A stretch of DNA of 64,000 nt from Peronospora farinosa (taxonomy: Eukaryota; Oomycota; Peronosporomycetes; Peronosporales; Peronosporaceae): NCBI GenBank assembly GCA_947646735.1, contig CANTFK010000905.1, forward strand, positions 51,224 through 115,223, given 5' to 3'. Position 1 is the stretch's first letter; the number at the start of each line of letters is the position of its first letter. This document shows, piece after piece, positions 32,899 through 63,634 of the stretch. The position numbers were made by a program, and so were the translations under genes. The notes under the pieces are model-generated. The model had not been told where the DNA came from, ran no database searches, and saw only the letters and a list, made by a program, of their open reading frames with translations.

Positions 32899-32970
32899 AG
32901 CGCGGGACCGGGATTGAACCAGTGACCCTTCGAGCTGCAATCGAACGCTCTACCACTGAGCTACCCGCGC
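32899..32970 (-). tRNA. tRNA-Cys(GCA), copy 3, abutted by SINE 1
   Basis: The tRNA sequence is intact, but its 5' flank is replaced from the very next base (32971) by SINE 1. Confidence 0.93.
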
Positions 32971-33248
32971 AACCCCGGTGGCGTGGGGTAGTGGATTAAG
33001 CTTCTGGTCCTCACGGTGTGGATTGCGGGTTCGAGCCCCACACCGGACATCTTCGTAATCGAACCACACATGGAGAGCGGTCGGCTCCATGCTAAATAAT
33101 AACCGACCCCAATAACCGTAACGGTATAATACTAATAATAGAGGAAAAAGAATAGAAAAAAAATTCAGCCTTAGCGAGCTGTGTAATATCTTAGCCATAG
33201 CCGAGAAGGTATAGGTTGTGTAAAAAGGTAATATACAACTAACTTAAA
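32971..33248 (+). mobile_element. SINE 1, tRNA-derived head, inserted at tRNA-Cys 5' end
   Basis: A 278-bp element nearly identical to SINE 2. Its 5' part looks tRNA-derived: CCGGTG (acceptor-like) pairs with CACCGG about 65 bases later. GGGGTAGTGGATTAAGC resembles box A/D-arm sequence, and GCGGGTTCGAGCCCC gives a good box B/T-arm, so polymerase III transcription is plausible. No protein frame is present. The 3' tail GGTAATATACAACTAACTT resembles the 3' end of the LINEs here (GTAATATAGACAACCTTT). It lies exactly between an intact tRNA-Cys and a second copy of the 16-bp tRNA 5' sequence. Confidence 0.85.
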
Positions 33249-33265
33249 ACTGAGCTACAGCGCGC
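33249..33265. repeat. Target-site duplicate between SINE 1 and LINE 1
   Basis: ACTGAGCTACAGCGCGC is a slightly altered copy of the 16-bp target ACTGAGCTACCCGCGC (tRNA-Cys nt 16-1). It serves as the right duplicate of SINE 1 and the left duplicate of LINE 1. Confidence 0.85.
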
Positions 33266-33363
33266 ACTTCTCAATTTGCCGGCTACCCCACAAGTCGACT
33301 CTTCAGAAGAACCCTCTCTCGCCCGCCGCTCCCGCCGCCCCCCTCTGTCCAAGCTTTTCCGCT

Positions 33364-36162
33364 ATGTTCGCTCCCACGAATCCAACTTCGGCCACAGCTG
33401 CCAACCCAGCCAATGCCGCTCGTCATCATGGTTCCGGGAAAGAATCCAGTGAGAAGCCTGCCTCGTCTGTTCCCCCGTCGTCCTCAACCCATGGCTCTGA
33501 CCAATCAGAAGCGTGGATTCGTGGAACGGGAGGGAACGGTTCGGTGTCGCAAGACTCTGAACCCACCCCAGGTTCAAGTGCAAGTTCAAGTTCAACGCGC
33601 GAAAATTTGGGATCTGGTTTTCAACCCACCCCAAGTTCAAGTTCAAGTCCAAGTGCAAGTGCAAGTGCAAGTGCAAGTGCAAGTCGACCAAAATTGGGAT
33701 CCGGTTCCGAACCCACCCCAACTGCAAGTTCAACTTGCAAACATTTGGGAAGTGATTTCGAAACTGGAGAAAATTCCAGCTTCAACCCATCTTCGGAGGG
33801 ACTTCCAGGACTGGATGAAGCGACCACCCCAGGTGGTACTTTAACCGAGAATCCGCCTGACACCACCACTGACGATGGGGATGTCGTCATGGTGGAAGGA
33901 GGTACTGTGGAAGCGCCAGCCGAAGACACACGTCCGACCATGGCCGAGCTGCTCCGGCAGCACGAACACCTCCGACGCGACCGAGCTGTGATCGAAGCAG
34001 CCCGCAAGCGCGTCGAGACCCCGAAGCCTCTTGCTGTGGACATCGAGGCGATTGAGCGCCAGTATGCTGCTGGTCACGACTGGTCGCTCATCGCTTCAAG
34101 AATGGAACAAGCGCGTCCCTATCAGCTACCGAGAGCCAAGTTTGACATGGTGATCGAGACTGGTAGAGCGCTTGCGAAGACTTCCGTCCACAAGATACTG
34201 GCGTCGCTTGCCGGTCCGGATCATGGAAACAGTGAGCTCGAAGAGCTGTACAAGCAATTCGAGATTGGCCAGATTTCCAAGATGCCGGGAGGCAACTTGC
34301 GCGTCAAGGTCAAGTCGAAAGAAGCCTGTGTGCGCTTGGAGCGCACCAAGGTGAATATCCTTGGAGGTGTGTTCACCTTCAAGGAGTTCGACATCCTTGG
34401 CGACAAGTACTACTTGGATATTTCCAATGTAGACTGCGACATGGATACGGATATGATCCTGCACCGACTGTTCCTTCTTGGATGCAAGCCGGTATACGAC
34501 ACCTTCCGTGAAGTGAACATGCCGACTGGAGTCACGTCTGCGACATGGCGGGTGTACTTCCTGTCGAGATCGTGCCCTCCAGCTTTGATCATCAACAACT
34601 GTGTGTGTGATCAGCTGGTCTTCGACAACAAGCTTCATCCTGCTCACGGGAAAAATGCGCCGTTCAGCTCAGAGCGAATGCCATTTGGCTATCGCTCGCA
34701 CCACGGAATCGATCTGGGCACGCAAGATAGCGTCTTTCCGCCACCTGAGCCTGCGTCCGAGCCAGATCGCCAGCAGCAGCAACAACACCAGCAATACCAA
34801 CAACCGAAGACGTACGCGCAAGCTGCGAATGCGAATGCGAATGCGAAGCCCAAGCCGATGCCCAAACAAACCTCGCTGCAGAGGGCAGTCGAGGACGCGA
34901 AAAAACGGGAAGGTCAGCTCCAGAAAGGAGCTCAGCATGGCAAGCCACCCGCTGCCAATCAGCTCACCAAGCTTCAAGGAAGCAACTCGGATGCGCTCTC
35001 GATCTCGACGTTCAACGGATCCAACGGCAAGATCACTCCCCCAGGGAGTCCGAAAGCTACAGCCAAGCCGAAGCTGTTGTTGACCACCGGAGCCAGCGAT
35101 GGCTTCATCGATGCGTCCAACAAGAAGAAACGCGGCCGCAACGCGATCGACTTCTCCAACATGTTGGTGAAGCAGTCCACGCAGCCCTTGAATGGCATCG
35201 CCACCTCCAACTACTTTCAAGCGCTCCAGTCGATGGAGGTCAAGTTCGAATCGAAGAACTTGACTGCTGACAAACAGTATGGAGTCCGCTATCAGGTTGT
35301 CCCTGCGGATGTGAAGCGTCCCGACGAATTGAAGACCTCGACCGAGTCTGCTTTCTTCGTCGAGAAGCACCACACGAAGATCAAGAAAGCAGCAAAGGCG
35401 TCGCCGGTCCTCGAAGTGACCGAGGCGATGATCAACGACGAGAACACGGCGCTTCTCAACACCCTCCCTGACTGTCTTGCGAAAGCGGACAAGAAGGTCG
35501 ACGGCGTGTGCAAGCTGCTCGAGAACGCCACGAATCCTGACCACATCACGAAGAAAGCGGTCGAGTGTCCGCTCGCCTTCAACAGCGCATTGGCGTTGAA
35601 GATGGCTGGAAGCGGACACGAGATCGCAGAACTGGCGCAACTTCACGCGATCAACCGCGTGTTCTGTGCGACGCAGCCCAATGAAGACACCACGTTCAGC
35701 ACGAAGTGGAAGAAGCTGATGGGATCGGCAGTTCCGTCGAAGCGTAGCGACATTTTCAAGACGTGTGCGAAGTGGTGGACGTCGTCCGACTCGATCAAGG
35801 AGCTGTCTCGCTCGTCCAAGGCTTTGGGCATGTTCGAGCTCATGCTCATGTCGATCGCGCCGACGATCTTCAACAACGACCACTGGATCCAGTACCTCAC
35901 GGGTCAGCCCGTCGAGTGGATCCCAGCACACAACACGCGACTTCTCCACGTGAACACCCTCCTTCGTCTCTTGCGGTCCGAGCTCGGTGCGCACTGTATG
36001 CAGCAGTGGAGTGAAGTGCAGTGGCAAGGTCACCTTCTGGACGACCTCGAGTCGCTTCAGAAGCTTGACGGGTTCTACAAAGAAGACGCTTCGGTGTTGC
36101 AGCTTCAAGTCGTTGAAGGTGGAGTTGCGATGGTAGCGGGCGGATTGGCCACTCGTTGCTAA
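33364..36162 (+). CDS. LINE 1 ORF1 protein
   Basis: 932 codons from the first ATG in the element. Residues ~45-130 are Ser/Pro/Ala-rich, with a run of alternating Ser-Ala (about 92-107) encoded by an AGTGCA microsatellite. Residues ~200-470 form the best-conserved block against the divergent LINE 2 (for example NLRVKVKSKEAC...LERTKVNILGGV and KPVYDTFREVN), probably an RNA-binding fold. A short Gln-rich patch follows at ~465-480, then a conserved C-terminal half rich in Trp and His (WWTSSD, NDHWIQY). I see no CCHC zinc knuckle. By analogy with other LINEs it should bind the element RNA, but this is inference. Confidence 0.85.
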   Translation: MFAPTNPTSATAANPANAARHHGSGKESSEKPASSVPPSSSTHGSDQSEAWIRGTGGNGSVSQDSEPTPGSSASSSSTRENLGSGFQPTPSSSSSPSASASASASASRPKLGSGSEPTPTASSTCKHLGSDFETGENSSFNPSSEGLPGLDEATTPGGTLTENPPDTTTDDGDVVMVEGGTVEAPAEDTRPTMAELLRQHEHLRRDRAVIEAARKRVETPKPLAVDIEAIERQYAAGHDWSLIASRMEQARPYQLPRAKFDMVIETGRALAKTSVHKILASLAGPDHGNSELEELYKQFEIGQISKMPGGNLRVKVKSKEACVRLERTKVNILGGVFTFKEFDILGDKYYLDISNVDCDMDTDMILHRLFLLGCKPVYDTFREVNMPTGVTSATWRVYFLSRSCPPALIINNCVCDQLVFDNKLHPAHGKNAPFSSERMPFGYRSHHGIDLGTQDSVFPPPEPASEPDRQQQQQHQQYQQPKTYAQAANANANAKPKPMPKQTSLQRAVEDAKKREGQLQKGAQHGKPPAANQLTKLQGSNSDALSISTFNGSNGKITPPGSPKATAKPKLLLTTGASDGFIDASNKKKRGRNAIDFSNMLVKQSTQPLNGIATSNYFQALQSMEVKFESKNLTADKQYGVRYQVVPADVKRPDELKTSTESAFFVEKHHTKIKKAAKASPVLEVTEAMINDENTALLNTLPDCLAKADKKVDGVCKLLENATNPDHITKKAVECPLAFNSALALKMAGSGHEIAELAQLHAINRVFCATQPNEDTTFSTKWKKLMGSAVPSKRSDIFKTCAKWWTSSDSIKELSRSSKALGMFELMLMSIAPTIFNNDHWIQYLTGQPVEWIPAHNTRLLHVNTLLRLLRSELGAHCMQQWSEVQWQGHLLDDLESLQKLDGFYKEDASVLQLQVVEGGVAMVAGGLATRC

Positions 36163-36211
36163 ACCTTCCTCGACGTCACAACCGACGTGGAGCAACATCA
36201 GTGTTCTGACT

Positions 36212-39200
36212 GTGAACACTAATGGCATCAAGAAGAATGGCCACCTATTTATCGAGAGCATGCTCTCCAAGTACTCAATGGCGTGCGTCCAAGAAACCAA
36301 GTTCGGCGACAGCACCCATCTTTCCAATTTCAAGTTCCACCTCGACTCGAGCTTCAAGCACAAGGTCTTCGTGGACGACCCCAACTCACAGCTGCATCGA
36401 CCCACGCGAGGACGGAGCAATGGAGTGTTGACTGTGCTCCGCTCTGACTTCCCTGGCTTCGACTCGGCTGTTGAATTTCCAAGTCTGTCGGTTCCCGGAC
36501 GCTACCTCGTCGTGAAAGTAATGGTTGAGAGTGCTCCCATCTACATTCACAACGTGTATGCGCCTGTGGACCGCCAAGAAAAGCAACAATTCTTCTCGAG
36601 CTTGGCGACCGAGGAGTTCGAAGATCAAGCGACGCATTTTGTGTTGGGCGATCTCAACACTCCCCTGGACCCGAGACTTGATTCTTCCAACCCCGACTTG
36701 CGCTACGATCCCAGCCGGTCCAGTTGCCTCGAATGGTTGGCGAAGCTGGGTGTCGTCGATGCATGGCGGATCCACTTCGACACCAAGCGTGTGTTCACTG
36801 GTCCTCTTCCTCGGAAGAATCGGCTGGACTACATCTTGCTGTCAGAGTCTTTCTACGACCGCTTCTACGACACCTCCAAGTACTTCCTGCCGATGCATGC
36901 TGGAGACCACCTTGCTCACAGTGTGAGTTTCAGGTCTGGCTCGCAGCTGCATGGACGAGGGTACTGGAAGTTCCCCCGCTATCTGCTGGAATACCCAGTG
37001 GTGGTGTCTGCGATCGAGAAAGAAGCCGAGCTGGTCCGAGACAAGCTACGCACCACGTCCAACCCAGGCAAGATCTGGGAGGAATGGAAGGCGAGCATCA
37101 AGACCCAACTCCAAGACGTGCAGAAGAAGCTCCGGATGCAAGACTCTCAAGCTGTCGAAGAAGCTCGCGTGCAGTTGGATCAAGCTGCGGCAAGGTATCG
37201 CACAGCAGGAAGCGATTCGAATCGAGACCACTTCGACGAAGCCATGAGGAACTATAAGGAGACGGTCACGCGGACGAGCCAATACAACCAAGACACTGCA
37301 TTCGACTTCCAAGCCGCCAACTCCGAGAAATCGACCAAGCACTTCTTCCGTCCGCTGGACACGAGCTTGAGACGAGTCTCGATCGAAGAGGTGATGACAC
37401 CGGGTGGAAGTGTCTCGACGAACCCTCACGAGATCTCTCTCCGCTTCCTGGAGCACTGGGGGTCCGAGATGGGAGACCCCAACAGTCCGACAGGGAGAGC
37501 TCCTCCACCCGACGATGGCATGCAGCGCAAGCTTCTCGACTCGATTGTCTGCTTCGTCACGGAGACTGACCGTGCGATCTTGGACGCACCGGTCACTTCT
37601 TCGGACCTTGCGAGCGCGATCCGACACATGAAAGCGTCGTCAGCACCCGGCATGGACGGATTGACCGCTGGTTTCTACCAGGTGGCTCCGGACGTGTTCG
37701 GAGAGTGCTTGAGCATCGTGTTCAACGAACGTCTCAAGCGTGGCGTGCTGCTCCCGTCTCAGCGCAAGTCTGCAGTCGTGCTTCTGCACAAGAAGGGTTC
37801 GAGAGCAGAGCCTGGCAACTACCGACCCATCGCACTGGTGCAAGTCGATGTGAAGGTGCTGTCCAAGGCTCTGACGTATCGACTCCAGCAAGTGATCGCC
37901 GACTTGATCCATCCCGACCAGAAGGGCTTCGTCAAGGGTCGCTCAATTCACCACCATGTGCGGTTCCTCGCGGACCTCCAAGACTTGACAACGAGTCGCG
38001 ATGAAGAAGCGTACGCGATGTTCTTGGACTTCCAGAAGGCGTTCGATCGAGTGAACTGGGACTACATGTTCCGGCTGCTCGAGCGAATGAGGTTCGGTTC
38101 AGAGTTTGCTCAGTGGATCAAGCTGCTGTACACCGACCCTCAAGCGCATCTTCTCATCAACCAGAACATCCAGCCTGCGCTGTTTCCGACACGAGGAGTG
38201 AAGCAAGGCGATCCGTTGTCTGCGCTGCTCTTCGTCTTGACCATCGAGCCGCTCGGCAACATGCTGCGTGCGCACGAAGAGTACGGAGTGTGTCTGAATG
38301 CAGACCACACGACGACGAGCACGTTCTTCGCGGACGACTCAACTCTGCTTGCGAGCTCGATACCGAACTTGCAGGCGCAGCTTGACACCGTGGATGAGTA
38401 CTGCAAAGGCTCTGGCGCGAAGCTCAATCTGTCCAAGTCGACGCTGCTAGCACTAAATCGGAACCAGACCTGCCCTTCGCTCCCCGGAGTGCAAGTGCTG
38501 GGTCGTGCGGAGACGGTGAAGTACCTTGGCATCCCGTTTGGGCAGTCGTCGGTGGATGACGACCTCGTGGAGTTCCTCGAGCAGCGCTTCTACGACGGCT
38601 TCAAGATGTGGTACCGGCGCGCAAGGACGCTTCGTGGGCGACTTCTGGTCGCTCAAACGATGGTGCTCTCCCGCTTGTGGCACTACACACAACATGTGTC
38701 AATCCCAGCAACAGTCGTGAAGCGATGGCAGTCGATGCTGAATCGGTTCGTGCTGAGTCGAAAGCACGACCGAGACGCGTCGTACATCCAGCTGATCCCA
38801 AGCGAGTTCCTGTATCAGCGACGGAGTGAAGGTGGTTTGGGAATCCCAAGCCTGGAAGCACATCTCAAGCGCCAGCGTCTTCAGCTGCTTCTGCAGTTCA
38901 TACGGGCTGCGAGAGTGACGGAAGCGCGGAACTGGACGACAGCGAGCTGTGAGTTGCTCCAACTGGTTCTTCCTCGCACCGGTGGCTACAACGCACTCGA
39001 CTTCCTCGTGGTCTCTCCACTCCGACATGGCGACATGATCAAGTGGAGACTGACTTCAACCTGGTGGAGAGCGACGTGGACGTGGTGGTACAAGATCCGG
39101 TGGGAAGTCACGTGGCAAGACCTTCCTTTTGAGGAGCGCGCTTGGTACGGTCTCCGACAGCCGATCTGGTTCCATTCGGATGCAGAGCTTCATTTCGAGC

Positions 39201-40291
39201 AGACTCCGCGGACTCACACCTGCGTGGCGCATCGGCGGTGCATTGGGATGGTGGTCGAGCCACAGCGGAGTTTCCGGCTGCACGTGTCACGAGTCTTTGG
39301 TGTGCGGTCGCTCGTTGACTTCATGCGTGAAAGCTGTGCTTGGCCGTCGCAGCAAGATTTCGTCCAGCGCCACCTTGACTTCACGCTTGCATCTGTCTCC
39401 CCTGGACAACAGGCAAAGTGGCTGCGAGTGTTGTACAAGGAAGCGACTCAGATCGTCGAGCGACTTGGCGCGACGCAGCTTGTTCTGCAGGCTTCGAGCA
39501 GTGCACGGCGACTTCTTCCCCATCTGGGTTGCAATAGCGACGCGAAGGTGTGCTTGATCCCAGCGATCCCGAGATCTGCGCTGCTGCGTGTGGTGTGGAC
39601 GCCAAAACCACCGACGAAGCCACATCCGATGACTGTGCACTCGCAGCGAGTTGGCGACGAGCAGATCAAAGCGTACGTCAAGTTCAGCAAGCACCTGCGC
39701 AAGATCCTGCTCCCTGTGTTCGAAGATCTGCAGTTCCGCCTCGCGTTTCGACTCCTACCGGTTCGATCGCGGTTCTGGTTCCTGCAGCAGTCGAACCCAC
39801 GCATCATATACTGCATCCGAGACAGGTGCGACGCAGTCGAGACAGAGCAGCACTTGTTCTTCGAATGTTCACTCGCGACAAGACTGTGGGAACACTTTGG
39901 GAACATCATGGCGCCGTTCGTCCGATCTCAACTGACATGGGTCATGATAGCGACAGCAAGGAAACCAGTCGTGCGAGACGAATGGAAGGAGTGTGAAGAC
40001 ATCATCGGAGATGTATGGCACACGCTCCGCGCGGTGACACTCCACTTCATCTGGTCCGACCGCAATCGGTGTCTGTTCGACGGAAGACAGCCCACACCGA
40101 CGACATCAGCAACGATGGTCATCTTCACCACAGCCAGCGCGCACTTTCGGCACAACCTGAGGAGGCGCTACGATGACGATGAGAGCGCATCACTGGAGAA
40201 GGCGCTTATCAAGATGAGGAAGTATCCGCCTTTTGGAGATTTTGCAACGGCGCACCCCGCCATGTTCCCAGTCCGTCACCTCCAACAGTAG
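36212..40291 (+). CDS. LINE 1 ORF2: APE endonuclease-reverse transcriptase
   Basis: 1,360 codons counted from GTG at 36212; the frame is open from 36137, but no ATG occurs before residue 17. Numbering from the GTG: endonuclease (exonuclease-endonuclease-phosphatase fold) motifs NTNGI (2-6), QETK (27-30), NVYAPVDRQEK, LGDLNTP, RLDYILLS and GDHLAHS. Reverse transcriptase follows, with PGMDGLTAGFYQ (~478), RPIALVQVDVK, FLDFQKAFDRVNWDYM, RGVKQGDPLSALLF and catalytic FADD (~706). The C-terminal domain has a C-x4-C-x7-H-x4-C motif at ~1201-1219 (CIRDRC...H...C), as in L1/Tx1-type ORF2 proteins. All catalytic motifs seen are intact. The endonuclease presumably dictates the tRNA-Cys site. How translation starts is unclear. 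Confidence 0.93.
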   Translation: MNTNGIKKNGHLFIESMLSKYSMACVQETKFGDSTHLSNFKFHLDSSFKHKVFVDDPNSQLHRPTRGRSNGVLTVLRSDFPGFDSAVEFPSLSVPGRYLVVKVMVESAPIYIHNVYAPVDRQEKQQFFSSLATEEFEDQATHFVLGDLNTPLDPRLDSSNPDLRYDPSRSSCLEWLAKLGVVDAWRIHFDTKRVFTGPLPRKNRLDYILLSESFYDRFYDTSKYFLPMHAGDHLAHSVSFRSGSQLHGRGYWKFPRYLLEYPVVVSAIEKEAELVRDKLRTTSNPGKIWEEWKASIKTQLQDVQKKLRMQDSQAVEEARVQLDQAAARYRTAGSDSNRDHFDEAMRNYKETVTRTSQYNQDTAFDFQAANSEKSTKHFFRPLDTSLRRVSIEEVMTPGGSVSTNPHEISLRFLEHWGSEMGDPNSPTGRAPPPDDGMQRKLLDSIVCFVTETDRAILDAPVTSSDLASAIRHMKASSAPGMDGLTAGFYQVAPDVFGECLSIVFNERLKRGVLLPSQRKSAVVLLHKKGSRAEPGNYRPIALVQVDVKVLSKALTYRLQQVIADLIHPDQKGFVKGRSIHHHVRFLADLQDLTTSRDEEAYAMFLDFQKAFDRVNWDYMFRLLERMRFGSEFAQWIKLLYTDPQAHLLINQNIQPALFPTRGVKQGDPLSALLFVLTIEPLGNMLRAHEEYGVCLNADHTTTSTFFADDSTLLASSIPNLQAQLDTVDEYCKGSGAKLNLSKSTLLALNRNQTCPSLPGVQVLGRAETVKYLGIPFGQSSVDDDLVEFLEQRFYDGFKMWYRRARTLRGRLLVAQTMVLSRLWHYTQHVSIPATVVKRWQSMLNRFVLSRKHDRDASYIQLIPSEFLYQRRSEGGLGIPSLEAHLKRQRLQLLLQFIRAARVTEARNWTTASCELLQLVLPRTGGYNALDFLVVSPLRHGDMIKWRLTSTWWRATWTWWYKIRWEVTWQDLPFEERAWYGLRQPIWFHSDAELHFEQTPRTHTCVAHRRCIGMVVEPQRSFRLHVSRVFGVRSLVDFMRESCAWPSQQDFVQRHLDFTLASVSPGQQAKWLRVLYKEATQIVERLGATQLVLQASSSARRLLPHLGCNSDAKVCLIPAIPRSALLRVVWTPKPPTKPHPMTVHSQRVGDEQIKAYVKFSKHLRKILLPVFEDLQFRLAFRLLPVRSRFWFLQQSNPRIIYCIRDRCDAVETEQHLFFECSLATRLWEHFGNIMAPFVRSQLTWVMIATARKPVVRDEWKECEDIIGDVWHTLRAVTLHFIWSDRNRCLFDGRQPTPTTSATMVIFTTASAHFRHNLRRRYDDDESASLEKALIKMRKYPPFGDFATAHPAMFPVRHLQQ

Positions 40292-40497
40292 CCACTGCTC
40301 CTGCGTCTATTCACACACATCGGAATCATCCACACTCGCACATCACGCAAGAAACAACTTGCACGCTATTCCCAAGAAACATGAAACATAGCAACTGTAC
40401 AGTATATTTATTAGAAAAACAGCAGTAGTTTCTATACATAGCTAGGTAGATTGAGTAGTCACTTCGTCTAAATTCTAGTAATATAGACAACCTTTCA

Positions 40498-40513
40498 ACT
40501 GAGCTACCCGCGC
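40498..40513. repeat. Target-site duplicate right of LINE 1
   Basis: ACTGAGCTACCCGCGC equals tRNA-Cys nt 16-1 read on the plus strand, followed by the normal unit spacer (GTCGAAACCG). Confidence 0.92.
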
Positions 40514-41077
40514 GTCGAAACCGTACTATCTCGACCCCATTCCACAAACGCCTCTTACGCACCTTACACTGTCCACACTGTCCACACGCTCTAACTCGTT
40601 CCACGACAGAATGATTTCTACCCCAATGCACCCTCCAAGCCTTTCTGCAATTTGTTAACAGCTGCACGAAGTGATGAGTGATGGCGACCTGTTCAGTGTA
40701 GTTGTCCCGACGATTATCGCTCGTCAAAGCATAAGATTTCATATTGAAAGGCGACCAACAGACGATCCGTCAGACTCACTCGCAGACTCACCCGATTTTG
40801 TGCTCCAGTCCGAGCTAGACCAAACGTCAGATCAAAAGCTGAACCTTAACTAGCATTGTGCTTGTGCGCAATGATAACATACAACAATCACATACGATTG
40901 TCAGCACATAGCGAAGTCAACAATGGACGCGGCTCTCACTTAAGTAACCAAGACAAAGCAAACGCAGCATAGTCCACAACATTGAAGGGCGACGGCAAGA
41001 ACAAGAAGGCGGGACCGGGATTGAACCAGTGACCCTTCGAGCTGCAATCGAACGCTCTACCACTGAGCTATCCGCGC
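40514..41077. repeat. tRNA-Cys array unit between LINE 1 and LINE 2, degenerate
   Basis: One 571-bp unit with seven missing bases, all G or C, compared with its neighbours. Examples are GTTCAGTG for GTTCGAGTG, CAACAATGG for CAAGCAATGG, and CCAAGACAAAG lacking CC. It contains the damaged tRNA copy 4. Confidence 0.9.
41007..41077 (-). pseudogene. Damaged tRNA-Cys, copy 4, abutted by LINE 2
   Basis: One base is missing in the 3' acceptor strand (AAGGCGGG for AAGCGCGGG) and position 41071 is T for C, so the acceptor stem no longer pairs properly. The anticodon arm and T arm are unchanged. Confidence 0.85.
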
Positions 41078-41163
41078 ACTTCTCAATTTGCCGGCTACTA
41101 CACAAGTCGACTCACAAGAAGAACCCAACCCCTCCCATCTCTGCTTTCTCTCCGCCTTTCCCC

Positions 41164-54030: not shown

Positions 54031-54102
54031 AGCGCGGGACCGGGATTGAACCAGTGACCCTTCGAGCTGCAATCGAACGCTCTACCACTGAGCTACCCGC
54101 GC
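54031..54102 (-). tRNA. tRNA-Cys(GCA), copy 14
   Basis: Intact, 571 bp after copy 13. Confidence 0.95.
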
Positions 54103-54601: not shown

Positions 54602-54673
54602 AGCGCGGGACCGGGATTGAACCAGTGACCCTTCGAGCTGCAATCGAACGCTCTACCACTGAGCTACCCGCGC
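54602..54673 (-). tRNA. tRNA-Cys(GCA), copy 15
   Basis: Intact, 571 bp after copy 14. Confidence 0.95.
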
Positions 54674-55172: not shown

Positions 55173-55244
55173 AGCGCGGGACCGGGATTGAACCAGTGAC
55201 CCTTCGAGCTGCAATCGAACGCTCTACCACTGAGCTACCCGCGC
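55173..55244 (-). tRNA. tRNA-Cys(GCA), copy 16
   Basis: Intact, 571 bp after copy 15. Confidence 0.95.
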
Positions 55245-55743
55245 GTCGAAACCGTACTATCTCGACCCCATTCCACAAACGCCTCTTACGCACCTTACAC
55301 TGTCCACACTGTCCACACGCTCTAACTCGTTCCACGACAGAATGATTTCTACCCCAATGCACCCTCCAAGCCTTTCTGCAATTTGTTAACAGCTGCACGA
55401 AGTGATGAGTGATGGCGACCTGTTCGAGTGTAGTTGTCCCGACGATTATCGCTCGTCAAAGCATAAGATTTCATATTGAAAGGCGACCAACAGACGATCC
55501 GTCAGACTCACTCGCAGACTCACCCGATTTTGTGCTCCAGTCCGAGCTAGACCAAACGTCAGATCAAAAGCTGAACCTTAACTAGCATTGGTGCTTGTGC
55601 GCAATGATAACATACAATAATCACATACGATTGTCAGCACATAGCGAAGTCAAGCAATGGACGCGGCTCTCACTTAAGTAACCAACTGACAAAGCAAACG
55701 CAGCATAGTTCACAACATTGACGCGGCGACGGCAAGAACAAGA

Positions 55744-55815
55744 AGCGCGGGACCGGGATTGAACCAGTGACCCTTCGAGCTGCAATCGAACGCTCTACCA
55801 CTGAGCTACCCGCGC
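55744..55815 (-). tRNA. tRNA-Cys(GCA), copy 17
   Basis: Intact; the flanking variant GTTCACAACATTGACGCGG matches copy 9. Confidence 0.95.
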
Positions 55816-56314
55816 GTCGAAACCGTACTATCTCGACCCCATTCCACAAACGCCTCTTACGCACCTTACACTGTCCACACTGTCCACACGCTCTAACTCG
55901 TTCCACGACAGAATGATTTCTACCCCAATGCACCCTCCAAGCCTTTCTGCAATTTGTTAACAGCTGCACGAAGTGATGAGTGATGGCGACCTGTTCGAGT
56001 GTAGTTGTCCCGACGATTATCGCTCGTCAAAGCATAAGATTTCATATTGAAAGGCGACCAACAGACGATCCGTCAGACTCACTCGCAGACTCACCCGATT
56101 TTGTGCTCCAGTCCGAGCTAGACCAAACGTCAGATCAAAAGCTGAACCTTAACTAGCATTGGTGCTTGTGCGCAATGATAACATACAATAATCACATACG
56201 ATTGTCAGCACATAGCGAAGACAAGCAATGGACGCGGCTCTCACTTAAGTAACCAACCGACAAAGCAAACGCAGCATAGTCCACAACATTGAAGCGGCGA
56301 CGGCAAGAACAAGA

Positions 56315-56386
56315 AGCGCGGGACCGGGATTGAACCAGTGACCCTTCGAGCTGCAATCGAACGCTCTACCACTGAGCTACCCGCGC
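56315..56386 (-). tRNA. tRNA-Cys(GCA), copy 18, abutted by LINE 3
   Basis: Intact from acceptor to discriminator; LINE 3 starts at the next base (56387), so its 5' leader is now the antisense of the LINE 5' end. Confidence 0.95.
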
Positions 56387-56484
56387 ACTTCTCAATTTGC
56401 CGGCTACCCCACAAGTCGACTCTTCAGAAGAACCCTCTCTCGCCCGCCGCTCCCGCCGCCCCCCTCTGTCCAAGCTTTTCCGCT

Positions 56485-59283
56485 ATGTTCGCTCCCACGA
56501 ATCCAACCTCGGCCACAGCTGCCAACCCAGCCAATGCCGCTCGTCATCATGGTTCCGGGAAAGAATCCAGTGAGAAGCCTGCCTCGTCTGTTCCCCCGTC
56601 GTCCTCAACCCATGGCTCTGACCAATCAGAAGCGTGGATTCGTGGAACGGGAGGGAACGGTTCGGTGTCGCAAGACTCTGAACCCACCCCAGGTTCAAGT
56701 GCAAGTTCAAGTTCAACGCGCGAAAATTTGGGATCTGGTTTTCAACCCACCCCAAGTTCAAGTTCAAGTCCAAGTGCAAGTGCAAGTGCAAGTGCAAGTG
56801 CAAGTCGACCAAAATTGGGATCCGGTTCCGAACCCACCCCAACTGCAAGTTCAACTTGCAAACATTTGGGAAGTGATTTCGAAACTGGAGAAAATTCCAG
56901 CTTCAACCCATCTTCGGAGGGACTTCCAGGACTGGATGAAGCGACCACCCCAGGTGGTACTTTAACCGAGAATCCGCCTGACACCACCACTGACGATGGG
57001 GATGTCGTCATGGTGGAAGGAGGTACTGTGGAAGCGCCAGCCGAAGACACACGTCCGACCATGGCCGAGCTGCTCCGGCAGCACGAACACCTCCGACGCG
57101 ACCGAGCTGTGATCGAAGCAGCCCGCAAGCGCGTCGAGACCCCGAAGCCTCTTGCTGTGGACATCGAGGCGATTGAGCGCCAGTATGCTGCTGGTCACGA
57201 CTGGTCGCTCATCGCTTCAAGAATGGAACAAGCGCGTCCCTATCAGCTACCGAGAGCCAAGTTTGACATGGTGATCGAGACTGGTAGAGCGCTTGCGAAG
57301 ACTTCCGTCCACAAGATACTGGCGTCGCTTGCCGGTCCGGATCATGGAAACAGTGAGCTCGAAGAGCTGTACAAGCAATTCGAGATTGGCCAGATTTCCA
57401 AGATGCCGGGAGGCAACTTGCGCGTCAAGGTCAAGTCGAAAGAAGCCTGTGTGCGCTTGGAGCGCACCAAGGTGAATATCCTTGGCGGTGTGTTCACCTT
57501 CAAGGAGTTCGACATCCTTGGCGACAAGTACTACTTGGATATTTCCAATGTAGACTGCGACATGGATACGGATATGATCCTGCACCGACTGTTCCTTCTT
57601 GGATGCAAGCCGGTATACGACACCTTCCGTGAAGTGAACATGCCGACTGGAGTCACGTCTGCGACATGGCGGGTGTACTTCCTGTCGAGATCGTGCCCTC
57701 CAGCTTTGATCATCAACAACTGTGTGTGTGATCAGCTGGTCTTCGACAACAAGCTTCATCCTGCTCACGGGAAAAATGCGCCGTTCAGCTCAGAGCGAAT
57801 GCCATTTGGCTATCGCTCGCACCACGGAATCGATCTGGGCACGCAAGATAGCGTCTTTCCGCCACCTGAGCCTGCGTCCGAGCCAGATCGCCAGCAGCAC
57901 CAACAACACCAGCAATACCAACAACCGAAGACGTACGCGCAAGCTGCGAATGCGAATGCGAATGCGAAGCCCAAGCCGATGCCCAAACAAACCTCGCTGC
58001 AGAGGGCAGTCGAGGACGCGAAAAAACGGGAAGGTCAGCTCCAGAAAGGAGCTCAGCATGGCAAGCCACCCGCTGCCAATCAGCTCACCAAGCTTCAAGG
58101 AAGCAACTCGGATGCGCTCTCGATCTCGACGTTCAACGGATCCAACGGCAAGATCACTCCCCCAGGGAGTCCGAAAGCTACAGCCAAGCCGAAGCTGTTG
58201 TTGACCACCGGAGCCAGCGATGGCTTCATCGATGCGTCCAACAAGAAGAAACGCGGCCGCAACGCGATCGACTTCTCCAACATGTTGGTGAAGCAGTCCA
58301 CGCAGCCCTTGAATGGCATCGCCACCTCCAACTACTTTCAAGCGCTCCAGTCGATGGAGGTCAAGTTCGAATCGAAGAACTTGACTGCTGACAAACAGTA
58401 TGGAGTCCGCTATCAGGTTGTCCCTGCGGATGTGAAGCGTCCCGACGAATTGAAGACCTCGACCGAGTCTGCTTTCTTCGTCGAGAAGCACCACACGAAG
58501 ATCAAGAAAGCAGCAAAGGCGTCGCCGGTCCTCGAAGTGACCGAGGCGATGATCAACGACGAGAACACGGCGCTTCTCAACACCCTCCCTGACTGTCTTG
58601 CGAAAGCGGACAAGAAGGTCGACGGCGTGTGCAAGCTGCTCGAGAACGCCACGAATCCTGACCACATCACGAAGAAAGCGGTCGAGTGTCCGCTCGCCTT
58701 CAACAGCGCATTGGCGTTGAAGATGGCTGGAAGCGGACACGAGATCGCAGAACTGGCGCAACTTCACGCGATCAACCGCGTGTTCTGTGCGACGCAGCCC
58801 AATGAAGACACCACGTTCAGCACGAAGTGGAAGAAGCTGATGGGATCGGCAGTTCCGTCGAAGCGTAGCGACATTTTCAAGACGTGTGCGAAGTGGTGGA
58901 CGTCGTCCGACTCGATCAAGGAGCTGTCTCGCTCGTCCAAGGCTTTGGGCATGTTCGAGCTCATGCTCATGTCGATCGCGCCGACGATCTTCAACAACGA
59001 CCACTGGATCCAGTACCTCACGGGTCAGCCCGTCGAGTGGATCCCAGCACACAACACGCGACTTCTCCACGTGAACACCCTCCTTCGTCTCTTGCGGTCC
59101 GAGCTCGGTGCGCACTGTATGCAGCAGTGGAGTGAAGTGCAGTGGCAAGGTCACCTTCTGGACGACCTCGAGTCGCTTCAGAAGCTTGACGGGTTCTACA
59201 AAGAAGACGCTTCGGTGTTGCAGCTTCAAGTCGTTGAAGGTGGAGTTGCGATGGTAGCGGGCGGATTGGCCACTCGTTGCTAA
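56485..59283 (+). CDS. LINE 3 ORF1 protein
   Basis: 932 codons. It corresponds base for base to LINE 1 ORF1, with one Gln-to-His change in the Gln-rich patch (codon at 57898-57900) among the differences seen. The ATG at 56485 is preferred over the upstream GTG inside the tRNA at 56338, because it matches the LINE 1 start. Confidence 0.86.
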   Translation: MFAPTNPTSATAANPANAARHHGSGKESSEKPASSVPPSSSTHGSDQSEAWIRGTGGNGSVSQDSEPTPGSSASSSSTRENLGSGFQPTPSSSSSPSASASASASASRPKLGSGSEPTPTASSTCKHLGSDFETGENSSFNPSSEGLPGLDEATTPGGTLTENPPDTTTDDGDVVMVEGGTVEAPAEDTRPTMAELLRQHEHLRRDRAVIEAARKRVETPKPLAVDIEAIERQYAAGHDWSLIASRMEQARPYQLPRAKFDMVIETGRALAKTSVHKILASLAGPDHGNSELEELYKQFEIGQISKMPGGNLRVKVKSKEACVRLERTKVNILGGVFTFKEFDILGDKYYLDISNVDCDMDTDMILHRLFLLGCKPVYDTFREVNMPTGVTSATWRVYFLSRSCPPALIINNCVCDQLVFDNKLHPAHGKNAPFSSERMPFGYRSHHGIDLGTQDSVFPPPEPASEPDRQQHQQHQQYQQPKTYAQAANANANAKPKPMPKQTSLQRAVEDAKKREGQLQKGAQHGKPPAANQLTKLQGSNSDALSISTFNGSNGKITPPGSPKATAKPKLLLTTGASDGFIDASNKKKRGRNAIDFSNMLVKQSTQPLNGIATSNYFQALQSMEVKFESKNLTADKQYGVRYQVVPADVKRPDELKTSTESAFFVEKHHTKIKKAAKASPVLEVTEAMINDENTALLNTLPDCLAKADKKVDGVCKLLENATNPDHITKKAVECPLAFNSALALKMAGSGHEIAELAQLHAINRVFCATQPNEDTTFSTKWKKLMGSAVPSKRSDIFKTCAKWWTSSDSIKELSRSSKALGMFELMLMSIAPTIFNNDHWIQYLTGQPVEWIPAHNTRLLHVNTLLRLLRSELGAHCMQQWSEVQWQGHLLDDLESLQKLDGFYKEDASVLQLQVVEGGVAMVAGGLATRC

Positions 59284-59332
59284 ACCTTCCTCGACGTCAC
59301 AACCGACGTGGAGCAACATCAGTGTTCTGACT

Positions 59333-62300
59333 GTGAACACTAATGGCATCAAGAAGAATGGCCACCTATTTATCGAGAGCATGCTCTCCAAGTACTCAAT
59401 GGCGTGCGTCCAAGAAACCAAGTTCGGCGACAGCACCCATCTTTCCAATTTCAAGTTCCACCTCGACTCGAGCTTCAAGCACAAGGTCTTCGTGGACGAC
59501 CCCAACTCACAGCTGCATCGACCCACGCGAGGACGGAGCAATGGAGTGTTGACTGTGCTCCGCTCTGACTTCCCTGGCTTCGACTCGGCTGTTGAATTTC
59601 CAAGTCTGTCGGTTCCCGGACGCTACCTCGTCGTGAAAGTAATGGTTGAGAGTGCTCCCATCTACATTCACAACGTGTATGCGCCTGTGGACCGCCAAGA
59701 AAAGCAACAATTCTTCTCGAGCTTGGCGACCGAGGAGTTCGAAGATCAAGCGACGCATTTTGTGTTGGGCGATCTCAACACTCCCCTGGACCCGAGACTT
59801 GATTCTTCCAACCCCGACTTGCGCTACGATCCCAGCCGGTCCAGTTGCCTCGAATGGTTGGCGAAGCTGGGTGTCGTCGATGCATGGCGGATCCACTTCG
59901 ACACCAAGCGTGTGTTCACTGGTCCTCTTCCTCGGAAGAATCGGCTGGACTACATCTTGCTGTCAGAGTCTTTCTACGACCGCTTCTACGACACCTCCAA
60001 GTACTTCCTGCCGATGCATGCTGGAGACCACCTTGCTCACAGTGTGAGTTTCAGGTCTGGCTCGCAGCTGCATGGACGAGGGTACTGGAAGTTCCCCCGC
60101 TATCTGCTGGAATACCCAGTGGTGGTGTCTGCGATCGAGAAAGAAGCCGAGCTGGTCCGAGACAAGCTACGCACCACGTCCAACCCAGGCAAGATCTGGG
60201 AGGAATGGAAGGCGAGCATCAAGACCCAACTCCAAGACGTGCAGAAGAAGCTCCGGATGCAAGACTCTCAAGCTGTCGAAGAAGCTCGCGTGCAGTTGGA
60301 TCAAGCTGCGGCAAGGTATCGCACAGCAGGAAGCGATTCGAATCGAGACCACTTCGACGAAGCCATGAGGAACTATAAGGAGACGGTCACGCGGACGAGC
60401 CAATACAACCAAGACACTGCATTCGACTTCCAAGCCGCCAACTCCGAGAAATCGACCAAGCACTTCTTCCGTCCGCTGGACACGAGCTTGAGACGAGTCT
60501 CGATCGAAGAGGTGATGACACCGGGTGGAAGTGTCTCGACGAACCCTCACGAGATCTCTCTCCGCTTCCTGGAGCACTGGGGGTCCGAGATGGGAGACCC
60601 CAACAGTCCGACAGGGAGAGCTCCTCCACCCGACGATGGCATGCAGCGCAAGCTTCTCGACTCGATTGTCTGCTTCGTCACGGAGACTGACCGTGCGATC
60701 TTGGACGCACCGGTCACTTCTTCGGACCTTGCGAGCGCGATCCGACACATGAAAGCGTCGTCAGCACCCGGCATGGACGGATTGACCGCTGGTTTCTACC
60801 AGGTGGCTCCGGACGTGTTCGGAGAGTGCTTGAGCATCGTGTTCAACGAACGTCTCAAGCGTGGCGTGCTGCTCCCGTCTCAGCGCAAGTCTGCAGTCGT
60901 GCTTCTGCACAAGAAGGGTTCGAGAGCAGAGCCTGGCAACTACCGACCCATCGCACTGGTGCAAGTCGATGTGAAGGTGCTGTCCAAGGCTCTGACGTAT
61001 CGACTCCAGCAAGTGATCGCCGACTTGATCCATCCCGACCAGAAGGGCTTCGTCAAGGGTCGCTCAATTCACCACCATGTGCGGTTCCTCGCGGACCTCC
61101 AAGACTTGACAACGAGTCGCGATGAAGAAGCGTACGCGATGTTCTTGGACTTCCAGAAGGCGTTCGATCGAGTGAACTGGGACTACATGTTCCGGCTGCT
61201 CGAGCGAATGAGGTTCGGTTCAGAGTTTGCTCAGTGGATCAAGCTGCTGTACACCGACCCTCAAGCGCATCTTCTCATCAACCAGAACATCCAGCCTGCG
61301 CTGTTTCCGACACGAGGAGTGAAGCAAGGCGATCCGTTGTCTGCGCTGCTCTTCGTCTTGACCATCGAGCCGCTCGGCAACATGCTGCGTGCGCACGAAG
61401 AGTACGGAGTGTGTCTGAATGCAGACCACACGACGACGAGCACGTTCTTCGCGGACGACTCAACTCTGCTTGCGAGCTCGATACCGAACTTGCAGGCGCA
61501 GCTTGACACCGTGGATGAGTACTGCAAAGGCTCTGGCGCGAAGCTCAATCTGTCCAAGTCGACGCTGCTAGCACTAAATCGGAACCAGACCTGCCCTTCG
61601 CTCCCCGGAGTGCAAGTGCTGGGTCGTGCGGAGACGGTGAAGTACCTTGGCATCCCGTTTGGGCAGTCGTCGGTGGATGACGACCTCGTGGAGTTCCTCG
61701 AGCAGCGCTTCTACGACGGCTTCAAGATGTGGTACCGGCGCGCAAGGACGCTTCGTGGGCGACTTCTGGTCGCTCAAACGATGGTGCTCTCCCGCTTGTG
61801 GCACTACACACAACATGTGTCAATCCCAGCAACAGTCGTGAAGCGATGGCAGTCGATGCTGAATCGGTTCGTGCTGAGTCGAAAGCACGACCGAGACGCG
61901 TCGTACATCCAGCTGATCCCAAGCGAGTTCCTGTATCAGCGACGGAGTGAAGGTGGTTTGGGAATCCCAAGCCTGGAAGCACATCTCAAGCGCCAGCGTC
62001 TTCAGCTGCTTCTGCAGTTCATACGGGCTGCGAGAGTGACGGAAGCGCGGAACTGGACGACAGCGAGCTGTGAGTTGCTCCAACTGGTTCTTCCTCGCAC
62101 CGGTGGCTACAACGCACTCGACTTCCTCGTGGTCTCTCCACTCCGACATGGCGACATGATCAAGTGGAGACTGACTTCAACCTGGTGGAGAGCGACGTGG
62201 ACGTGGTGGTACAAGATCCGGTGGGAAGTCACGTGGCAAGACCTTCCTTTTGAGGAGCGCGCTTGGTACGGTCTCCGACAGCCGATCTGGTTCCATTCGG

Positions 62301-63412
62301 ATGCAGAGCTTCATTTCGAGCAGACTCCGCGGACTCACACCTGCGTGGCGCATCGGCGGTGCATTGGGATGGTGGTCGAGCCACAGCGGAGTTTCCGGCT
62401 GCACGTGTCACGAGTCTTTGGTGTGCGGTCGCTCGTTGACTTCATGCGTGAAAGCTGTGCTTGGCCGTCGCAGCAAGATTTCGTCCAGCGCCACCTTGAC
62501 TTCACGCTTGCATCTGTCTCCCCTGGACAACAGGCAAAGTGGCTGCGAGTGTTGTACAAGGAAGCGACTCAGATCGTCGAGCGACTTGGCGCGACGCAGC
62601 TTGTTCTGCAGGCTTCGAGCAGTGCACGGCGACTTCTTCCCCATCTGGGTTGCAATAGCGACGCGAAGGTGTGCTTGATCCCAGCGATCCCGAGATCTGC
62701 GCTGCTGCGTGTGGTGTGGACGCCAAAACCACCGACGAAGCCACATCCGATGACTGTGCACTCGCAGCGAGTTGGCGACGAGCAGATCAAAGCGTACGTC
62801 AAGTTCAGCAAGCACCTGCGCAAGATCCTGCTCCCTGTGTTCGAAGATCTGCAGTTCCGCCTCGCGTTTCGACTCCTACCGGTTCGATCGCGGTTCTGGT
62901 TCCTGCAGCAGTCGAACCCACGCATCATATACTGCATCCGAGACAGGTGCGACGCAGTCGAGACAGAGCAGCACTTGTTCTTCGAATGTTCACTCGCGAC
63001 AAGACTGTGGGAACACTTTGGGAACATCATGGCGCCGTTCGTCCGATCTCAACTGACATGGGTCATGATAGCGACAGCAAGGAAACCAGTCGTGCGAGAC
63101 GAATGGAAGGAGTGTGAAGACATCATCGGAGATGTATGGCACACGCTCCGCACGGTGACACTCCACTTCATCTGGTCCGACCGCAATCGGTGTCTGTTCG
63201 ACGGAAGACAGCCCACACCGACGACATCAGCAACGATGGTCATCTTCACCACAGCCAGCGCGCACTTTCGGCACAACCTGAGGAGGCGCTACGATGACGA
63301 TGAGAGCGCATCACTGGAGAAGGCGCTTATCAAGATGAGGAAGTATCCGCCTTTTGGAGATTTTGCAACGGCGCACCCCGCCATGTTCCCAGTCCGTCAC
63401 CTCCAACAGTAG
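59333..63412 (+). CDS. LINE 3 ORF2: endonuclease-reverse transcriptase
   Basis: 1,360 codons counted from GTG at 59333, and the frame is open from 59258 without ATG. It has the same motifs as LINE 1 ORF2, with an Ala-to-Thr change encoded at 63152 (HTLRTVTLHF). Intact endonuclease, RT and Cys/His motifs suggest a competent enzyme. Confidence 0.93.
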   Translation: MNTNGIKKNGHLFIESMLSKYSMACVQETKFGDSTHLSNFKFHLDSSFKHKVFVDDPNSQLHRPTRGRSNGVLTVLRSDFPGFDSAVEFPSLSVPGRYLVVKVMVESAPIYIHNVYAPVDRQEKQQFFSSLATEEFEDQATHFVLGDLNTPLDPRLDSSNPDLRYDPSRSSCLEWLAKLGVVDAWRIHFDTKRVFTGPLPRKNRLDYILLSESFYDRFYDTSKYFLPMHAGDHLAHSVSFRSGSQLHGRGYWKFPRYLLEYPVVVSAIEKEAELVRDKLRTTSNPGKIWEEWKASIKTQLQDVQKKLRMQDSQAVEEARVQLDQAAARYRTAGSDSNRDHFDEAMRNYKETVTRTSQYNQDTAFDFQAANSEKSTKHFFRPLDTSLRRVSIEEVMTPGGSVSTNPHEISLRFLEHWGSEMGDPNSPTGRAPPPDDGMQRKLLDSIVCFVTETDRAILDAPVTSSDLASAIRHMKASSAPGMDGLTAGFYQVAPDVFGECLSIVFNERLKRGVLLPSQRKSAVVLLHKKGSRAEPGNYRPIALVQVDVKVLSKALTYRLQQVIADLIHPDQKGFVKGRSIHHHVRFLADLQDLTTSRDEEAYAMFLDFQKAFDRVNWDYMFRLLERMRFGSEFAQWIKLLYTDPQAHLLINQNIQPALFPTRGVKQGDPLSALLFVLTIEPLGNMLRAHEEYGVCLNADHTTTSTFFADDSTLLASSIPNLQAQLDTVDEYCKGSGAKLNLSKSTLLALNRNQTCPSLPGVQVLGRAETVKYLGIPFGQSSVDDDLVEFLEQRFYDGFKMWYRRARTLRGRLLVAQTMVLSRLWHYTQHVSIPATVVKRWQSMLNRFVLSRKHDRDASYIQLIPSEFLYQRRSEGGLGIPSLEAHLKRQRLQLLLQFIRAARVTEARNWTTASCELLQLVLPRTGGYNALDFLVVSPLRHGDMIKWRLTSTWWRATWTWWYKIRWEVTWQDLPFEERAWYGLRQPIWFHSDAELHFEQTPRTHTCVAHRRCIGMVVEPQRSFRLHVSRVFGVRSLVDFMRESCAWPSQQDFVQRHLDFTLASVSPGQQAKWLRVLYKEATQIVERLGATQLVLQASSSARRLLPHLGCNSDAKVCLIPAIPRSALLRVVWTPKPPTKPHPMTVHSQRVGDEQIKAYVKFSKHLRKILLPVFEDLQFRLAFRLLPVRSRFWFLQQSNPRIIYCIRDRCDAVETEQHLFFECSLATRLWEHFGNIMAPFVRSQLTWVMIATARKPVVRDEWKECEDIIGDVWHTLRTVTLHFIWSDRNRCLFDGRQPTPTTSATMVIFTTASAHFRHNLRRRYDDDESASLEKALIKMRKYPPFGDFATAHPAMFPVRHLQQ

Positions 63413-63618
63413 CCACTGCTCCTGCGTCTATTCACACACATCGGAATCATCCACACTCGCACATCACGCAAGAAACAACTTGCACGCTATTCCCAAGAAA
63501 CATGAAACATAGCAACTGTACAGTATATTTATTAGAAAAACAGCAGTAGTTTCTATACATAGCTAGGTAGATTGAGTAGTCACTTCGTCTAAATTCTAGT
63601 AATATAGACAACCTTTCA

Positions 63619-63634
63619 ACTGAGCTACCCGCGC
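63619..63634. repeat. Target-site duplicate right of LINE 3
   Basis: ACTGAGCTACCCGCGC, as after the other insertions. Confidence 0.92.

What the first reader, a model, noticed from the sequence alone, without database searches (positions are those of the whole stretch)
32899..63634. Site-specific LINE family that targets the tRNA-Cys gene 5' end and leaves the tRNA intact
Three of three LINEs insert in the same orientation at the same nucleotide, directly against nt 1 of a tRNA-Cys(GCA) gene, with a 16-bp duplication equal to tRNA nt 1-16. The junctions imply a first nick on the tRNA-sense strand after GCGCGGGTAGCTCAGT (inside box A, just before the conserved GG) and second-strand cleavage flush with nt 1. 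Because the duplicated segment is the tRNA 5' end, a full tRNA is rebuilt on the left of each insert. This is a harm-avoiding strategy that differs from insertion at a distance upstream of tRNA genes, as in the Dictyostelium TRE elements. tRNA spacing arithmetic confirms 16 bp exactly (LINE 2: 7,006 + 16).
Basis: partly seen in the sequence, partly recalled or inferred. Interest (0 to 1): 0.92.

Follow-up and report, generated by a model that had tools for sequence, protein, structure and literature searches.

The report
LINEs inserting at tRNA-gene starts
In a downy-mildew-like oomycete genome, a family of jumping genes and a short companion element land at exactly the first letter of many different tRNA genes and, by copying the first 16 letters, leave a whole tRNA gene behind that can be used as a landing site again.

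Summary
The observation largely holds and extends genome-wide, with corrections. In the 46.85-Mb genome, 30 of 30 tabulated full 5' ends lie at tRNA nucleotide 1 or an equivalent copy (26 at called tRNA genes, 3 at copies of nt 1-16 left by another element, 1 at a Met/Tyr chimeric gene), and 34 of 35 3' ends meet the complement of box A (TAGCTCAGT). Targets are not only tRNA-Cys: Phe, Lys, Ala, Thr, Trp, Ile and Tyr genes are hit too; neighbouring His and Ser genes lacking the motif are not. Spread over eight gene types excludes amplification of one insertion for the family, though LINE 1 and LINE 3 may be related. Rebuilt tRNAs are re-used, giving stacks up to three deep. All three Ala insertions carry a non-Ala 'GT', and three duplications differ from their target in ways found once in the genome: the element RNA may carry a copy of its target. 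Best reading: an oomycete L1-group LINE nicking box A after nt 16. New variant of target-specific LINEs; activity untested.

The parts
31757..64000 (-). tandem array of tRNA-Cys(GCA) genes, 571-bp unit, interrupted by the elements; all 21 exact genome copies of GCGCGGGTAGCTCAGT lie here
32899..32970 (-). intact tRNA-Cys against which SINE 1 is inserted (nt 1 = 32970)
32971..33248 (+). SINE copy 1 (tRNA-like head), stacked between the tRNA and LINE 1
33249..33265 (.). 17-bp altered duplication (ACTGAGCTACAGCGCGC) between SINE 1 and LINE 1; occurs once in the genome
33266..40497 (+). LINE 1, subfamily A, full length 7,232 bp
33364..36162 (+). LINE 1 ORF1 (932 aa; weak RRM-like fold in residues 254-431)
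36137..40291 (+). LINE 1 ORF2 open frame: APE endonuclease + reverse transcriptase + CCHC motif
40498..40513 (.). right 16-bp copy of tRNA nt 1-16 after LINE 1
41005..41077 (-). tRNA-Cys rebuilt at LINE 2, acceptor stem since altered
41078..48083 (+). LINE 2, subfamily B, full length 7,006 bp (ORF1 41164-43731, ORF2 43778-47869)
48084..48099 (.). right 16-bp copy after LINE 2
50312..50383 (-). intact tRNA-Cys rebuilt at SINE 2
50384..50659 (+). SINE copy 2, 276 bp
50660..50675 (.). right exact 16-bp copy after SINE 2
56315..56386 (-). intact tRNA-Cys rebuilt at LINE 3
56387..63618 (+). LINE 3, subfamily A, full length 7,232 bp (ORF1 56485-59283, ORF2 59333-63412)
63619..63634 (.). right exact 16-bp copy after LINE 3

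Best explanation
An L1-group (APE-type) LINE lineage of oomycetes, with a SINE-like element that uses the same site, inserts by target-primed reverse transcription at box A of tRNA genes. Its endonuclease nicks the tRNA-sense strand after nt 16 (TAGCTCAGT^) and the other strand is cut flush with nt 1, so the 16-bp duplication rebuilds the tRNA gene next to the element's 5' end. The rebuilt gene is a fresh target, so elements stack with the newest nearest the tRNA. Shown: positions, orientation, duplications, isotype range, stacking, presence of near-identical copies in separate arrays. Inferred: which enzyme cuts, the order of cuts, LINE-driven SINE movement, and that the RNA template carries a read-through copy of the source tRNA's 5' end which pairs with the nicked target.
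For: 30 of 30 complete 5' ends at the site: 26 within 3 nt of nt 1 of a tRNA gene called by ARAGORN, 3 against a 16-17 bp copy left by another element, 1 against a Met/Tyr chimeric tRNA gene. 34 of 35 3' ends followed by ACTGA[GA][CT]TA. 15 LINEs with both ends at full-length spacing (6,966-7,238 bp), all at such sites; 15 of the 32 copies tabulated with two ends have exact 16/16 duplications. Eight isotypes: Cys, Phe, Lys, Ala, Thr, Trp, Ile, Tyr. In the fetched stretches 0 elements at 12 His and 4 Ser genes (GTAGTATAGTGG, TTGGCCGAGTGG) interleaved in the same arrays as hit Ala and Thr/Trp genes. Of 26 element-adjacent tRNA genes, 15 equal the commonest sequence of their array, 5 more differ only in where ARAGORN set the ends, 6 carry real changes. 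APE and RT motifs present (QET, GDLN, GDH, FADD); Pfam and PDB matches are to APE, RT and human L1 ORF2p. Template-carried target: all 46 Ala genes matched read CTCAAATGG, yet 3 of 3 right-hand copies in the Ala array read CTCAGT; three altered duplications occur once each in the genome.
Against: A tRNA-Asn array with the same TAGCTCAGTTGG box A (53 exact motif copies on C74) has no element, so box A is not sufficient or other factors matter. One diverged SINE relic (C257, 77%) is not at the motif. One LINE-B (C248:614250-621246) has Trp on the left and Thr on the right, probably by recombination. SINE and LINE 3' tails are not significantly alike (444 and 159 of 1000 shuffles as good), which weakens the inference that the LINE moves the SINE. 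Altered duplications might also come from mutation or later gene conversion; one of the three (GCCCCGATAGCTCAGT) differs from its Thr target by a single base. LINE 1 and LINE 3 share a 6-bp repeat-length variant that the six other subfamily-A copies compared lack. For copies outside the window only about 2.2 kb at one end and 2.7 kb at the other were read.
Confidence: 0.8

Rival explanations
1. Targeting is by tethering to the Pol III machinery (TFIIIB/TFIIIC), as proposed for TRE5-A and Ty3, and the endonuclease then cuts at the nearest permitted place.
For: All 30 complete 5' ends tabulated are at Pol III genes or copies of their 5' ends; TRE5-A ORF1 binds TFIIIB subunits and TRE5 is an L1-group element in opposite orientation to the tRNA (PMC5911963, passages). 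The empty Asn array shows that sequence alone does not predict occupancy.
Against: The position is exact rather than a window, and lies inside the gene at nt 1/16; interleaved His and Ser genes without the motif are not hit (0 of 12 and 0 of 4; small numbers, and the stretches were chosen around elements).
Confidence: 0.12
2. A single old insertion was multiplied together with the tRNA array by unequal crossing-over or gene conversion.
For: The arrays are tandem and homogenised; LINE 1 and LINE 3 are 99.945% identical and share a 6-bp shorter (TGCGAA)n repeat that the six other subfamily-A copies compared do not have, so for this one pair a common insertion or conversion stays possible.
Against: Same subfamilies in eight different tRNA gene types on several contigs. 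By substitutions LINE 1 is closer to an Ala-array copy (0 over about 4.9 kb of sampled ends) than to LINE 3 (4), and in the 5' 2.2 kb LINE 3 is closer to the C220 Met/Tyr copy (1) than to LINE 1 (3). Spacer variants beside the window insertions differ (only 366 bp after LINE 3 lie in the window). Two subfamilies and a SINE share the site.
Confidence: 0.03
3. The elements spread between tRNA arrays by homologous recombination or gap repair through tRNA sequence at their edges rather than by nicking box A.
For: Altered duplications, a LINE with Trp and Thr flanks and a Met/Tyr chimeric gene at one LINE point to exchange of tRNA sequence.
Against: A 5'-truncated LINE whose left end lies one base from nt 1 of a tRNA copy (C248:623628) and exact 16-bp duplications are what target-primed reverse transcription makes; recombination does not readily explain a constant 16-bp length over several gene types.
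Confidence: 0.05

Closest known systems
TRE5-A / TRE5 elements of Dictyostelium discoideum (L1 group)
   Same: Non-LTR element with APE and RT, upstream of tRNA genes, opposite orientation (PMC5911963, passages).
   Different: TRE5 lies 40-54 bp upstream in a window and TRE5-A ends in oligo(A); here the junction is exact at nt 1, the duplication is the tRNA 5' end itself, and the LINE 3' ends in the window show no oligo(A) tail.
NLTR-A of Dictyostelium purpureum
   Same: Closest in position: 2-6 bp upstream of the mature tRNA (PMC5006619, passages).
   Different: A small window rather than flush with nt 1; carries RNase H, which was not found here.
Dewa and other Tx1-clade target-specific LINEs (Keno, Mutsu)
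   Same: Target-specific LINEs of multicopy small-RNA genes; Tx1-clade elements are APE-type (PMC4640811, passages). That Dewa, Keno and Mutsu belong to this clade is recalled.
   Different: Dewa is reported in the spacer of tRNA-Leu of zebrafish (one passage of PMC3706591; the original 2004 paper not seen); here the site is inside many tRNA isotypes.
Dada DNA transposons in tRNA genes (zebrafish, Perkinsus)
   Same: Three Perkinsus families have TAGCTC of box A as putative duplication (PMC3706591, passages).
   Different: DDE transposase with 6-7 bp duplications inside the tRNA; in Perkinsus each family is restricted to its own tRNA.
Utopia (oomycete and other U2 snRNA-specific LINEs)
   Same: Target-specific LINE in an oomycete, inside gene arrays, several families at one site (PMC4640811, passages).
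   Different: Restriction-like endonuclease, U2 target; here APE and tRNA.

Membership tests
L1-group (APE-type) non-LTR retrotransposon | ORF2 with APE-like endonuclease and reverse transcriptase | tested here: met
   PF03372 and PF00078 above cut-off in both subfamilies; best PDB sequences for LINE 1 ORF2 are human L1 ORF2p, E 1.3e-59, against R2 at 3.9e-24
L1-group (APE-type) non-LTR retrotransposon | C-terminal CCHC motif, no RNase H | tested here: met
   CX4CX7HX4C at residue 1201 of both ORF2s; no RNase H family at E up to 0.1
Tx1 clade | RT groups with Tx1, Keno, Dewa, Mutsu | not tested
   no Tx1-clade reference sequences in hand; the RT tree shows only an oomycete-rich clade apart from the plant rows
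TRE5 | insertion about 40-54 bp upstream of tRNA genes | tested here: not met
   junctions at nt 1 in 26 of 30 5' ends, the other 4 at copied or chimeric nt-1 sites
NLTR-A | 2-6 bp upstream, RNase H domain | tested here: not met
   full-length LINE junctions flush with nt 1 or its copy (one with 1 extra base); no RNase H
Utopia | restriction-like endonuclease, U2 snRNA target | tested here: not met
   APE endonuclease; tRNA target
SINE | tRNA-derived head with Pol III promoter | tested here: inconclusive
   ARAGORN finds a tRNA-like cloverleaf only at relaxed threshold; no Rfam match to the SINE at E up to 1
SINE | 3' tail shared with its partner LINE | tested here: not met
   tail alignments no better than shuffles; but the insertion site is the same

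The most novel reading that the evidence does not exclude
The element carries its own guide: because each insertion duplicates the tRNA 5' end directly behind the element's 3' end, read-through RNA would end with the antisense of box A (about 9-12 nt or more), which pairs with the nicked tRNA strand at the next target. This would explain the templated 'GT' at Ala genes, the altered duplications and the ability to move among eight tRNA isotypes, and would make it a self-renewing, RNA-assisted targeting system. (Probability lowered from 0.35 on checking, because one of the three altered duplications differs from its target by one base only.)
Probability: 0.32. Interest if true: 0.85.

Novelty: new variant of a known kind. 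Interest (0 to 1): 0.74.

Why it matters
It appears to be a LINE family that cuts inside an essential promoter element (box A) and yet restores the gene, so one target can be used repeatedly; the stacks record the order of insertions. It offers an APE-type system with a nucleotide-exact target shared by many tRNA genes, of interest for how APE endonucleases gain specificity, for RNA-target pairing in target-primed reverse transcription, and for targeted gene insertion. It also separates LINE and SINE insertions from the tandem tRNA units of Peronosporaceae, which one study proposes to call SINE-like (PMC11540230, section 9 read).

Tried and rejected

Literature: searches (search 67 failed on its arguments) listed no paper, as far as titles and abstract starts show, that describes a LINE at nt 1 of tRNA genes in oomycetes. 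Lists were capped, only open papers are held, and Repbase and subscription papers were not searchable. The roles of read-through RNA in R1 and SART1 are recalled; for R2 I saw passages of PMC10499050. Passages of PMC2881922 were seen for general TPRT.
Full report
What is in the window. ARAGORN finds 18 tRNA-Cys(GCA) genes on the minus strand, mostly in 571-bp units. The array is broken four times: by a SINE plus LINE 1, by LINE 2, by a lone SINE and by LINE 3. LINE 1 and LINE 3 differ at 4 of 7,232 positions (subfamily A); LINE 2 (subfamily B) is about 75.6% identical in DNA and 77% in ORF2 protein. The window lies in G000:C240 of a 46.85-Mb, 274-contig genome. A database protein of Peronospora farinosa (P0151) matches LINE 1 ORF1 at 100% over 375 + 259 residues, so the host is probably a Peronospora; this is an inference.

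Genome-wide flanks. DNA searches with the LINE-A 3' end, the SINE, the LINE-A 5' end, the LINE-B 5' end and the LINE-B 3' end gave 28, 18, 17, 19 and 26 matches. Loci were cut out for 20 of 28, all 18, all 17, all 19 and none, respectively. From 64 of these loci (L009-L072; the others repeat covered places or, for L082, hold an 80-bp fragment without ends) plus the window I tabulated 30 complete 5' ends and 35 3' ends. Of the 30 5' ends, 26 abut nt 1 of a tRNA gene called by ARAGORN (within 3 nt of its called end), 3 abut a 16-17 bp copy left by another element, and 1 (C220:229519) abuts a chimeric gene made of a Met 5' half and a Tyr intron plus 3' half. SINE 5' ends were probed from their second base and often carry one extra base at the junction. 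Of the 35 3' ends, 34 are followed by ACTGA[GA][CT]TA, the complement of box A; the exception is a 77% relic on C257. Weak or fragmentary matches (fetched: C2, C186, C215, C233, C270, C82; not fetched: C150, C271, a second place on C48) lack complete ends or were not read, and were not counted; a diverged LINE-B tail on C48 was read separately and is followed by ACTGAGCC.

Targets. The hit genes are Cys-GCA (C240), Phe-GAA (C198, C256), Lys-TTT (C229), Ala-AGC (C235), Thr-CGT and Trp-CCA (C248), Ile-AAT (C56) and Tyr-GTA (C220). The commonest sequence of each carries TAGCTCA at nt 8-14. In the fetched stretches, 12 His genes lying next to the Ala genes and 4 Ser genes of the Thr/Ser/Trp array have none; those stretches were chosen around elements, so this is a modest control. 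Against a simple rule, 53 exact motif copies in a tRNA-Asn array on C74 (TAGCTCAGTTGG; two genes read and called Asn) show no element.

State of the rebuilt genes. Of 26 element-adjacent tRNA genes, 15 equal the commonest sequence of their array, 5 differ only in where ARAGORN set the ends, and 6 carry changes: three Phe (nt 7), two Ala and the Cys gene at LINE 2. So insertion leaves a whole tRNA sequence, but some copies have changed since or during insertion.

Duplications and mechanism. Of 32 copies tabulated with two ends, 15 have an exact 16/16 duplication of tRNA nt 1-16. The other 17 are two Ala LINEs sharing 14 bp, an Ala SINE with further changes, LINE 2 and two SINEs with one change, copies in stacks or with altered duplications, a Trp/Thr recombinant, a Lys SINE with a partial match, and truncated or rearranged copies whose left edge was not resolved. 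For a duplication of nt 1-16 with the element in this orientation, target-primed reverse transcription implies a first nick on the tRNA-sense strand after nt 16 and a second cut flush with nt 1 (inference from established TPRT logic). Fifteen LINEs have both ends at full-length spacing, and one 5'-truncated LINE (C248:623628) ends one base from nt 1 of a tRNA copy, as expected for TPRT.

Independence. Near-identical copies in eight gene types cannot come from one array. For the window pair the data disagree. Over the sampled ends (about 2.2 kb 5' and 2.7 kb 3') LINE 1 has 0 substitutions against an Ala-array copy and 1 against a Thr copy, but 4 against LINE 3; in the 5' part LINE 3 has 1 substitution against the C220:229519 copy and 3 against LINE 1. 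Against this, LINE 1 and LINE 3 share a (TGCGAA)n repeat one unit (6 bp) shorter than in the six other subfamily-A copies compared. Spacers beside the window insertions carry different variants. I favour separate insertions for LINE 1 and LINE 3, but a common origin is not excluded. The Lys copy is 9-10% diverged in its 5' part although its 3' part is 99.9% identical, so copies can be mosaic.

Stacking. At least three sites show elements on top of each other: Cys (SINE on LINE-A), Ile (a LINE-B with LINE-A tail on a LINE-B) and Thr (SINE on a truncated LINE-A on a full LINE-A). The order is inferred from the rebuilt tRNA being the only complete target.

Template-carried target. All 46 Ala genes matched by the pattern GGGGATGTAGCTCARNNGG read CTCAAATGG (forms without nt 17 would not match), yet all three right-hand copies next to elements in the Ala array read CTCAGT. 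Three other right-hand copies are altered: GGTCGATGTAGCTCAGT (Ile site), GCGCGCTGTAGCTCAGT (Cys site) and GCCCCGATAGCTCAGT (Thr site); each occurs once in the genome. The first two look like the target's first 5-6 nt joined to a box-A segment of another isotype; the third differs from Thr by one base and could be a plain mutation. I read the set as evidence that the RNA 3' end carries read-through tRNA antisense sequence that pairs with the primer. For R2, RNA with 3' homology to the target makes initiation more precise (PMC10499050, passages). Later gene conversion is an alternative. The Met/Tyr chimera may mean that RNA 5' ends carry tRNA sequence too.

Proteins. ORF2 has APE and RT domains with catalytic motifs and a CCHC motif; best solved relatives are human L1 ORF2p. 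ORF1 has no Pfam match; its model has a weak RRM-like region. Among the 120 listed of 155 relatives of ORF2, those at 70% identity or more over at least 80% of it include proteins named for Globisporangium splendens and Peronospora matthiolae and one whose name is cut off as [Plasmo...; others come from unnamed contigs. ORF1 relatives include Plasmopara halstedii, Phytophthora and Pythium proteins.

Against the known. TRE5, TRE3, NLTR-A, Ty3 (PMC5911963, PMC5006619, passages), Dewa and Dada (PMC3706591, passages) and Utopia (PMC4640811, passages) are the nearest. None of the passages I read describes a LINE with a junction at nt 1 and a duplication of nt 1-16. Tandem tRNA arrays of the same kind are known in Phytophthora infestans (271 tRNA-Cys in a 513-nt unit; PMC9584435, passages) and Peronospora effusa (PMC11540230, passages and section 9).

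Noticed in passing
L050, G000:C220:229519: LINE-A preceded by a chimeric tRNA gene: Met-like 5' half joined to Tyr intron and 3' half; possibly 5' transduction of tRNA sequence.
   Followed up: partly
G000:C198, e.g. 14037, 22644, 23530, 11959: All four tRNA-Phe copies with G instead of A at nt 7 among 19 called on fetched parts of C198 lie beside SINEs (11959 beside a rearranged one); 12 others away from elements and 3 beside elements have A. On C256 one G copy is not beside an element, so the link is not strict. Unexplained.
   Followed up: partly
G000:C74:9-40424: tRNA-Asn array (777-bp unit, 53 exact motif copies) with the full box A motif but no insertion in the searches made.
   Followed up: partly
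G000:C56:14046-21046: LINE-B body with a LINE-A 3' tail, i.e. a chimeric element, with an altered duplication behind it.
   Followed up: partly
G000:C248:614250-621246: LINE-B bridging tRNA-Trp on the left and the upstream flank of tRNA-Thr on the right; C248 also holds elements in both orientations, which suggests recombination between copies.
   Followed up: no
window 36137-36259: ORF2's open frame starts inside the end of ORF1 (another frame, 26-bp overlap) with no ATG until 36259; frameshift or reinitiation likely.
   Followed up: no
window 33266-33314 and 41078-41126: The first 49 bp are about 90% identical between subfamilies A and B although the next few hundred bp did not align by BLAST; they form the new upstream flank of the rebuilt tRNA.
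   Followed up: no
window 40514-41004: The array unit after LINE 1 has eight gap columns against the other units, the last two at the alignment edge; decay or long-read assembly error.
   Followed up: no
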